Shown piece after piece: positions 32,234 through 59,957 of a stretch of 64,000 bases of DNA. The notes under the pieces were generated by a model. It was not told where the DNA came from. It saw only the letters and a list, made by a program, of their open reading frames with translations, and did no database searches. Location: NCBI RefSeq assembly GCF_009659535.1, contig NZ_VJZZ01000017.1, positions 62,001 to 126,000 of the forward strand. The letters are read 5' to 3'. Origin of the DNA: Aggregicoccus sp. 17bor-14. GTDB lineage: Bacteria; Myxococcota; Myxococcia; Myxococcales; Myxococcaceae. The first letter of the stretch is position 1; every line of letters starts with the position of its first letter. A program made the position numbers and the translations under genes.

Positions 32234-32349
32234 CGCGGCACAGTCTCCATCGCTCCAGAGCTGGGTGCCACCGCTACCGGAGCGCGTGGGTATCGCCGCG
32301 TTCAGGTGCACTGCTTGCCGGAAGGGGCGTCGGGACTGGAAGGATGACG

Positions 32350-32397
32350 GAGCGCTGCGGCCGCTCGCGGTGGGGCGTTGTCGACTCCGCAGCGCTC
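32350..32397. repeat. 11-bp inverted repeat
   Basis: GAGCGCTGCGG (32350-32360) and CCGCAGCGCTC (32387-32397) are perfect reverse complements across a 26-base spacer. Confidence 0.6.
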
Positions 32398-32493
32398 AGG
32401 GGTGACACGCTGGCGTCCATGGGTTCGCGTCCCCAGCGCTGCGCGGGATGAAGCTTCCGTCCTCGCTTGCACCCGCGCCGTCGGCCCTCCTCC

Positions 32494-32520
32494 GCGTGGA
32501 ACGAAACGTCCGTTCTACGC
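32494..32520. repeat. 10-bp hairpin
   Basis: GCGTGGAACG (32494-32503) pairs with CGTTCTACGC (32511-32520) with a single G-U pair; loop AAACGTC. Confidence 0.55.
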
Positions 32521-32591
32521 GAGAGCCCTCCGGCTCCGGGGCGCGCTTCACTCTGCGTGCGTCCCCCCTCGGGAGCGGCGGCCCGCGTCGC

Positions 32592-32624
32592 GCAAAAACG
32601 TAAAATAGGATTTTACGTTTTTGC
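32592..32624. repeat. AT-rich perfect palindrome, 15-bp arms
   Basis: GCAAAAACGTAAAAT (32592-32606), loop AGG, then ATTTTACGTTTTTGC (32610-32624). The arms are about three-quarters A/T in a very GC-rich genome. The flanks show weak mirrored similarity for a further ~30 bases (CGCGGGCCGCCGCTCCCGAG on one side, CGCGCCCGTCCGCGCCCGGG-like on the other), suggesting a larger imperfect inverted repeat. Confidence 0.75.
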
Positions 32625-32896
32625 ATCGCGCGCCCGTCCGCGCCCGGGAGGGGCGTCTCCTTTCGGGACAGCCGTCCCGTGCGTCGTGGACGGCTTCACC
32701 CACCTGGAGAAGCCCCGTCCCCTCCCGGCCTCTCCTTCTCGAGGCCGTGGGCCGCGCGCCACTCTCGCGTGTCATCGAAGCGGGCCAGGTGAGTGCGTGC
32801 CGTTGGGAACGAATCATCCGGAAGCGTGGCATCCACTCGCTGGTGCATCGACTGCACGGCGGCCCTGCTCCGTCGCTGCTGTGCGCGGAACGTCCG

Positions 32897-59904: not shown

Positions 59905-59915
59905 GAGGGCGCCTT

Positions 59916-59938
59916 CCCCTCTCCCAGAGGGAGAGGGG
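59916..59938. terminator. symmetrical hairpin between convergent genes
   Basis: CCCCTCTCCC (59916-59925), AGA, GGGAGAGGGG (59929-59938): perfect 10-bp stem. It is placed as a bidirectional terminator between the oxidoreductase and SLOG-TIR genes and resembles dispersed REP-like elements. Confidence 0.55.
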
Positions 59939-59957
59939 ACACCTTCGCCCTCGTTCC

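What the first reader, a model, noticed from the sequence alone, without database searches (positions are those of the whole stretch)
32350..32680. Structured non-coding block with a perfect AT-rich palindrome
Within about 330 bases lie an 11-bp inverted repeat, a 10-bp hairpin, a 33-base palindrome with perfect 15-bp arms made mostly of A/T, and a smaller hairpin, with no gene. The palindrome is compositionally foreign here and its flanks mirror each other imperfectly. It is unlike an intrinsic terminator, whose stem should be GC-rich and followed by T. Options: structured RNA, miniature transposable element, recombination site or replication-linked element.
Basis: seen in the sequence. Interest (0 to 1): 0.55.

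Follow-up and report, generated by a model that had tools for sequence, protein, structure and literature searches.

The report
Modular intergenic repeat with AT-rich palindrome
The odd block is one of 25 copies of a DNA repeat lying between genes in this bacterium, part of a larger set of mix-and-match repeats not found in the other genomes searched, and is probably a small mobile element that spread without a gene of its own.

Summary
The 15-bp-arm palindrome (32592-32624) is real and beyond chance. The block is one copy of a repeat spanning about 32313-32776. Its own genome has 25 copies, none overlapping a predicted gene; 12 of 25 lie between convergent genes. No element-length match occurs in 39 relatives (one 30-nt hit), and the exact palindrome is absent from the species-genome and viral collections.

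This family ('A') belongs to a modular set. Its 5' domain is homologous to an 84-nt domain of a second family ('B', about 38 loci). In B, all 21 loci with two model hits carry them as inward-facing inverted pairs, that is, terminal inverted repeats. One locus (C11) has the AT palindrome between two B-type ends; another (C2) has one A-type and one B-type end. Hairpin modules and other central palindromes are shuffled among elements.

Best reading: lineage-specific, non-autonomous, MITE-like mosaic repeats, comparable to pneumococcal BOX. Covariation gives almost no support for a structured RNA. No target duplication, clean empty site or autonomous partner was found. It is a new member of a known kind; what the palindrome does is open.

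The parts
32313..32776 (+). this copy of the family A repeat (conserved unit; older ends may reach up to about 140 bp further out on the 5' side and about 80 bp on the 3' side in other copies)
   Evidence: blastn of the window against 24 other copies; end motifs in other copies
32327..32409 (+). 5' domain, homologous to the terminal inverted repeat domain of family B
   Evidence: alignment A4 of 24 copies; B profile hits 24 of 25 family A loci here, 11 of them above HMMER's inclusion threshold
32350..32397 (+).
   Evidence: not conserved as a perfect 11-bp pair in the other copies
32410..32546 (+). variable middle; holds 0 to several hairpin modules; absent in four copies
   Evidence: alignments
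32445..32462 (+). hairpin module of the GGAATGAAGCTTCCTTCC type
   Evidence: sequence; module search in own genome and 23 relatives
32495..32519 (+). hairpin module CGTGGAACGAAACGTCCGTTCTACG, related to the module in which an insertion sequence lands elsewhere in this genome
   Evidence: sequence; compare
32547..32769 (+). 3' domain, the best-conserved part (mean column identity 83% in 24 copies)
   Evidence: alignment A3
32563..32653 (+). imperfect 44-nt inverted repeat around the palindrome
32592..32624 (.). AT-rich central palindrome, 15-bp arms, AGG spacer
   Evidence: 24 genome positions with at most 3 mismatches
32655..32669 (+). small hairpin GTCTCCTTTCGGGAC
   Evidence: sequence, alignment A3
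32664..32679 (+). small hairpin CGGGACAGCCGTCCCG
   Evidence: sequence
32726..32747 (+). hairpin CGGCCTCTCCTTCTCGAGGCCG
   Evidence: sequence, alignment A3

Best explanation
The block is one copy of a lineage-specific, non-autonomous mobile repeat of the MITE / intergenic-mosaic kind. Shown: 25 dispersed intergenic copies; modular build (5' end domain, variable array of hairpin modules, 3' domain around an AT-rich palindrome); homology of the 5' domain with the inverted terminal domain of a second family; hybrid loci joining the two families; a short subfamily at four unrelated places. Inferred: the ancestor was an element bounded by roughly 84-nt terminal inverted repeats that a transposase supplied in trans copied or moved; copies then exchanged or lost modules by recombination among themselves, so that different central palindromes sit between related ends; family A lost or never kept a recognisable 3' end domain; copies survive where they do least harm, beside the 3' ends of genes. 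The palindrome most likely serves as a binding or strand-extrusion site for that machinery or for a host protein; this last step is a guess.
For: 25 copies in the own genome, none overlapping a predicted gene, flanks unrelated beyond the element apart from a 5' extension of about 134 bp shared by two copies and three short or coding similarities elsewhere. 12 of 25 between convergent genes and 3 of 25 between divergent ones, against 9 and 9 of 54 neighbouring gene pairs in the window (one-sided Fisher p = 0.0046); with 18 family B loci counted, 22 of 43 (p = 0.0003). Model R1 of the 84-nt domain gives 63 hits in the own genome and 0 in 59 relatives; the 63 fall into 21 loci with two hits, all 21 inward-facing (+ left, - right, span 270 to 1038 bp), 18 loci with one hit (one of them C11), and 3 family A copies. 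The B profile hits the 5' domain of 24 of 25 family A loci, 11 above the inclusion threshold. L032 (C11) has the palindrome between two inverted B-type ends, E 1.4e-9 and 6.4e-5. L127 (C2:240) has one B end and one A-type end, E 4e-16. Four copies (L022, L025, L026, L027) lack the middle and all four share GGGGA where the other 20 aligned copies have GGGGT: a subfamily at four places. In one relative (G006), where the fabI junction of copy L023 is kept, the gap is about 280 bp instead of about 560 and that genome has no family A match.
Against: No target-site duplication was recognised at any locus (ends read by eye). The outer ends of family A are diffuse; the end motif CTTCAGKTSGGTCGCG is not enriched genome-wide (60 hits at up to 2 mismatches against 115 for the backward control), although 3 of its 10 hits with at most one mismatch lie at element ends in the expected orientation. 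No autonomous element with these ends was found, and the REP-type transposase family PF01797 is absent from the genome. The G006 site is not a clean empty site: the neighbour match is weak (E 7e-4 for 38 residues) and the gap holds other repeats. Relatives are distant (70-85% at conserved genes), so absence there does not date the spread. The single-family E-values are mostly weak (down to 1.1).
Confidence: 0.6

Rival explanations
1. Host-serving REP/BIME-like elements: a recurrent intergenic site that acts in the DNA (binding of a nucleoid or supercoiling protein) or at gene 3' ends (stabilising or ending transcripts), spread long ago but now kept for that function.
For: High conservation of the 3' domain (83% mean identity) and of the left palindrome arm (unchanged in 19 of 25) compared with decayed flanks; excess between convergent genes; inverted modules; an insertion sequence lands in one module, as known for REPs (PMC1525189, abstract).
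Against: Much longer than REPs; no REP-type transposase; four copies lack the whole middle and the palindrome is perfect in only 6 of 25; 13 of 25 are not between convergent genes. Homogenisation by recombination among copies could also explain the conservation. Host function itself was not testable.
Confidence: 0.22
2. A family of structured RNAs (small RNA genes or a cis-regulatory RNA).
For: Many conserved hairpins; folded consensus energy of -54 kcal/mol for the 3' domain.
Against: Both-side changes in 1 of 55 and 2 of 17 predicted pairs, covariation terms about 0; the right arm carries an uncompensated G-to-C change in 14 of 25 copies; no Rfam match at gathering, and the best of four sub-threshold matches has E 0.2 to a plant-type microRNA family far below its cut-off; gene order (12 convergent, 3 divergent of 25) does not suit a riboswitch; no fixed reading direction to a downstream gene.
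Confidence: 0.1
3. A relic of retron msDNA retroposition, as reported for Nannocystis repeats.
For: Only a recalled lead: myxobacterial repeats similar to msDNA were reported by Lampson and Rice 1997, seen here as a reference-list entry.
Against: No Rfam match, which would include the msr family if it is still held there (recalled), at gathering or at E 5; inverted end domains are not a retron feature (recalled). I did not search for a reverse transcriptase, and did not compare with the Nannocystis sequences.
Confidence: 0.03

Closest known systems
BOX elements of Streptococcus pneumoniae (PMC3049150; abstract and section 5 read)
   Same: Modular intergenic repeat with end modules and a middle module in variable number, total 67-637 bp, predicted hairpins, found in essentially one lineage, judged by its authors to be probably parasitic; a second and third repeat family in the same genome.
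   Different: No sequence relation was tested or expected; BOX has end repeats and target duplications described, which I could not show for family A; here the host is GC-rich and the families share an end domain; AT-rich central palindromes are exchanged between families.
REP / BIME / REPIN sequences
   Same: Extragenic, palindromic, mosaic, high copy; targets for specific insertion sequences (PMC1525189, abstract).
   Different: REPs are much shorter (recalled) and go with a tyrosine transposase of the PF01797 family, absent here; this unit is about 460 bp with a long conserved domain.
RIME / ABC intergenic mosaic elements of rhizobia
   Same: Intergenic mosaic of palindromic modules (recalled; the listing only shows that the term is in use).
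   Different: Not compared at sequence level.
MITEs in general
   Same: Short, non-coding, multicopy, inverted ends (in family B), lineage-specific.
   Different: No target duplication and no parent element recognised.

Membership tests
MITE (non-autonomous DNA transposon) | many dispersed non-coding copies with unrelated flanks | tested here: met
   25 copies; flanks; gene predictions
MITE (non-autonomous DNA transposon) | terminal inverted repeats | tested here: inconclusive
   met in family B (21 of 21 two-hit loci inward-facing) and in the hybrid L032; in family A only weak end motifs in a few copies
MITE (non-autonomous DNA transposon) | target-site duplication | tested here: inconclusive
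   none recognised by eye at element ends; precise ends are not defined
MITE (non-autonomous DNA transposon) | parent transposase with matching ends | not tested
   no general transposase survey was made; none of the listed two-ended loci spans more than 1038 bp, and no predicted gene lies between the ends in the 18 family B loci checked or in L121
MITE (non-autonomous DNA transposon) | occupied versus empty sites | tested here: inconclusive
   window site: flanks not syntenic in 23 relatives; fabI site: one relative keeps the junction without the repeat, weakly supported
REP/BIME/REPIN | REP-associated tyrosine transposase (PF01797) in the genome | tested here: not met
   0 matches; control genomes ring in 5 of 14
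structured RNA family | pairing kept by compensatory changes | tested here: not met
   1 of 55 and 2 of 17 pairs
structured RNA family | match to a known family | tested here: not met
   Rfam
structured RNA family | transcript | not testable with these tools
   no RNA-seq
intrinsic terminator | GC-rich stem followed by a T run | tested here: not met
   the palindrome is AT-rich and is followed by ATCGCGCGCC
BOX element | boxA/boxB/boxC sequence | not tested
   only architecture compared,

The most novel reading that the evidence does not exclude
The exchangeable central palindromes (the AT palindrome of family A, ACAAACCTCGGG...CCCGAGGTTTGT, and the TGTTCTGAGATGTCGGGGGTTTT block) are addresses read by different DNA-binding proteins, so that one shared mobile chassis with common inverted ends has been loaded with several alternative recognition cassettes and now forms a dispersed set of sites for genome organisation or for insulation between convergent genes.
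Probability: 0.1. Interest if true: 0.65.

Novelty: new member of a known kind. Interest (0 to 1): 0.42.

Why it matters
It shows how a bacterial genome can carry a self-contained set of about 60 mix-and-match repeats that has left no trace in the relatives searched, with hybrids that let module exchange be read directly. Such sets are the raw material for gene-end structure, for recombination between copies and for insertion-sequence targeting; here all four right ends of one insertion sequence found genome-wide lie in the same hairpin module. The exchangeable palindromes make it possible to ask by pull-down whether repeat families carry distinct protein addresses.

Tried and rejected
Own gene in the block: mechanical ORFs cross it, but one-base indels between copies and the gene caller speak against coding. 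tRNA, tmRNA and Rfam: nothing at threshold; the four sub-threshold matches are implausible. Intrinsic terminator: rejected for the palindrome. Phage origin: 0 exact matches of the palindrome core in viral contigs. Other species: 0 exact matches of the palindrome core and 0 of the family B end pattern in genome contigs; these are exact-pattern scans and the tool warns that records near the window's own genome may be left out. Relatives: 2 of 40 genomes match, the own one and G027 with a single 30-nt stretch (E 2.4e-5), taken as chance., a family B query: besides the own genome, five of 23 relatives give short weak matches (E 3e-5 to 8e-4), not followed up. (59 relatives) scored only the 75 best candidates per genome with strict filters, so distant relatives could be missed; the end motif is rarer than its backward control, so it is used only as a hint; the window site cannot be tested for an empty site because its flanks are not together in relatives. 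One search gave no hit in one of 25 family A loci (L028) and one off-target hit (L018, E 5.5). One search timed out without output and was replaced; the 38-residue tail of the insertion-sequence protein has no Pfam match; its likeness to IS4/Tn5-type transposases is recalled only. Alignment A1 misaligns family A ends and was not used further. Dropped before counts: L033 (a module-only hit) was fetched but not counted as a copy; L032 was left out of alignments A3 and A4; 15 of the 33 fetched family B loci, among them L121, were left out of the gene-orientation count. Literature: searches found no paper on such repeats in myxobacteria in the held library (0 to 3 papers each, none on the subject by title and abstract start); this is no proof that none exists, and I do not know the species name.

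Full report
What is there. The palindrome at 32592-32624 has perfect 15-bp arms, 30% GC in a 73% GC window, and no equal in the window or in 20 random sequences.

It is a repeat. A 451-bp query from the block finds the own genome full of copies. With flanks fetched I count 25 copies, including the window's: 24 genome positions carry the palindrome with at most 3 mismatches and one more (C6, L020) has a more changed one. The conserved unit is about 32313-32776. The arms are perfectly paired in 6 of 25, with one mismatch in 14, two in 4 and four in 1; 14 of 25 have the same uncompensated G-to-C change in the right arm.

Anatomy. Three parts: a 5' domain of about 83 nt; a variable middle with hairpin modules such as TGGAATGAAGCTTCCTTCCA and TGGAACGAAACGTCCGTTCCA, missing altogether in L022, L025, L026 and L027; and a 3' domain of about 223 nt centred on the palindrome. 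The four short copies also share a base change that the 20 other aligned copies lack, so they look like a subfamily. By eye, L010 resembles L012/L013 in its 5' part and L011 in its 3' part, as if copies had recombined. A few copies show a further end motif, about 141 bp upstream (L022, L031) and, inverted, about 56 bp downstream (L027); genome-wide that motif is rarer than its backward control, so it is only suggestive.

Setting. With a codon-usage gene caller written for this purpose no copy overlaps a gene. Twelve of 25 lie between convergent genes, 10 between tandem and 3 between divergent genes; neighbouring gene pairs in the window are 9 convergent, 36 tandem and 9 divergent of 54, the pair around the element left out. 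The excess between convergent genes is p = 0.0046, and 0.0003 with 18 family B loci added. Homology between loci stops at the element in most pairs.

A second family. The hairpin module occurs in many places outside the 25 copies and in none of 23 relatives. Those places are elements of another family, B, with its own blocks: CTGTTCTGAGATGTCGGGGGTTTT... and, in L119, L120, L121 and L135, a palindrome ACAAACCTCGGG...CCCGAGGTTTGT. Family B is bounded by an 84-nt domain. A covariance model of that domain (built from 41 of these ends, so those match by construction) gives 63 hits in the own genome and none in 59 relatives. They fall into 21 two-hit loci, 18 one-hit loci and 3 family A copies. All 21 two-hit loci face inward. 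One of the one-hit loci is C11 (L032), which I count with family A; that leaves 38 family B loci, some of which may be halves of one element cut by a contig end.

Links between the families. The B end profile hits the 5' domain in 24 of 25 family A loci, 11 above HMMER's inclusion threshold, the rest weaker. The reverse search with the A 5' domain finds B ends, 8 above threshold. In L032 the AT palindrome stands between two inverted B-type ends. L127 has a B end on one side and a strongly A-type end (E 4e-16) on the other. So the palindrome is one of several exchangeable centres between related ends.

Elsewhere. The family A query finds nothing element-like in 39 relatives (one 30-nt hit). The exact palindrome core is absent from genome contigs and viral contigs, and so is an exact B end pattern from genome contigs. 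One relative of 23, G006, seems to keep the junction of fabI and its convergent neighbour at which copy L023 lies; there the gap is about 280 bp, against about 560 here, without this repeat (and 0 matches for G006), but the neighbour match is weak and the gap holds other repeats.

RNA or DNA? The consensus fold is stable, but the covariation terms are +0.02 (3' domain) and +0.13 (5' domain), and both-side changes occur in 1 of 55 and 2 of 17 pairs. Copies are alike in sequence rather than in pairing. This disfavours, but does not exclude, an RNA role; recombination among copies would also hide covariation.

An insertion sequence in the modules. Four contigs (C2, C7, C18, C24) begin with the same 119 bp, the right end of an insertion sequence; these are all the matches in the genome, and all four are followed by half of the hairpin module, GAACRYTTCGTCCA, and then by a B end. 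Four left ends seen at contig ends (start of C19 and C25, end of C14 and C19) abut the matching half GGACGGAACRYTT; these were looked at because B ends lie there and no genome-wide search for left ends was made. Insertion sequences that target REP palindromes are known (PMC1525189, abstract).

Interpretation. The closest architecture I know is pneumococcal BOX: modules in variable number, 67-637 bp, lineage-restricted, probably parasitic (PMC3049150, abstract and section 5). That paper, too, could not establish target duplications for one of its families because no comparable empty site was available. I therefore read the block as a non-autonomous, MITE-like mosaic repeat (confidence 0.6). Mobility by a trans-acting transposase is inferred; target duplications, a parent element and clean empty sites are not shown. 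A kept host function (0.22) is the main rival.

Noticed in passing
own genome C2, C7, C18, C24 (contig starts; L157, L158, L086, L160) and C14 end, C19 both ends, C25 start (L079, L136, L159, L135): An insertion sequence lies at one position inside the hairpin module GGACGGAACRYTTCGTCC of these repeats: 4 of 4 right ends found genome-wide and the 4 left ends looked at; it seems to break the assembly there. No Pfam match for its 38-residue tail.
   Followed up: partly
window 59915-59939: TCCCCTCTCCCAGAGGGAGAGGGGA, the only other perfect hairpin with arms of 11 bp or more in the window; it resembles the outermost sequence next to several family B ends (CCCTCTCCCTCTGGGAGAGGGTCGGGGTGAGGG).
   Followed up: no
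L074 1-420 (C14 start) and L082 1000-1720 (C28 end, reverse strand): Two nearly identical stretches of several hundred bases at contig ends with hairpin modules followed by a T run, looking like intrinsic terminators.
   Followed up: no
L121 576-1613 (C13:35275-36312): The longest family B element, 1038 bp; its interior of several hundred bases is unexplained; the gene caller finds no gene in it.
   Followed up: no
L181 2281-2564 (relative G006): The fabI junction of an unnamed relative holds its own short direct repeats, unrelated by eye to families A and B.
   Followed up: no
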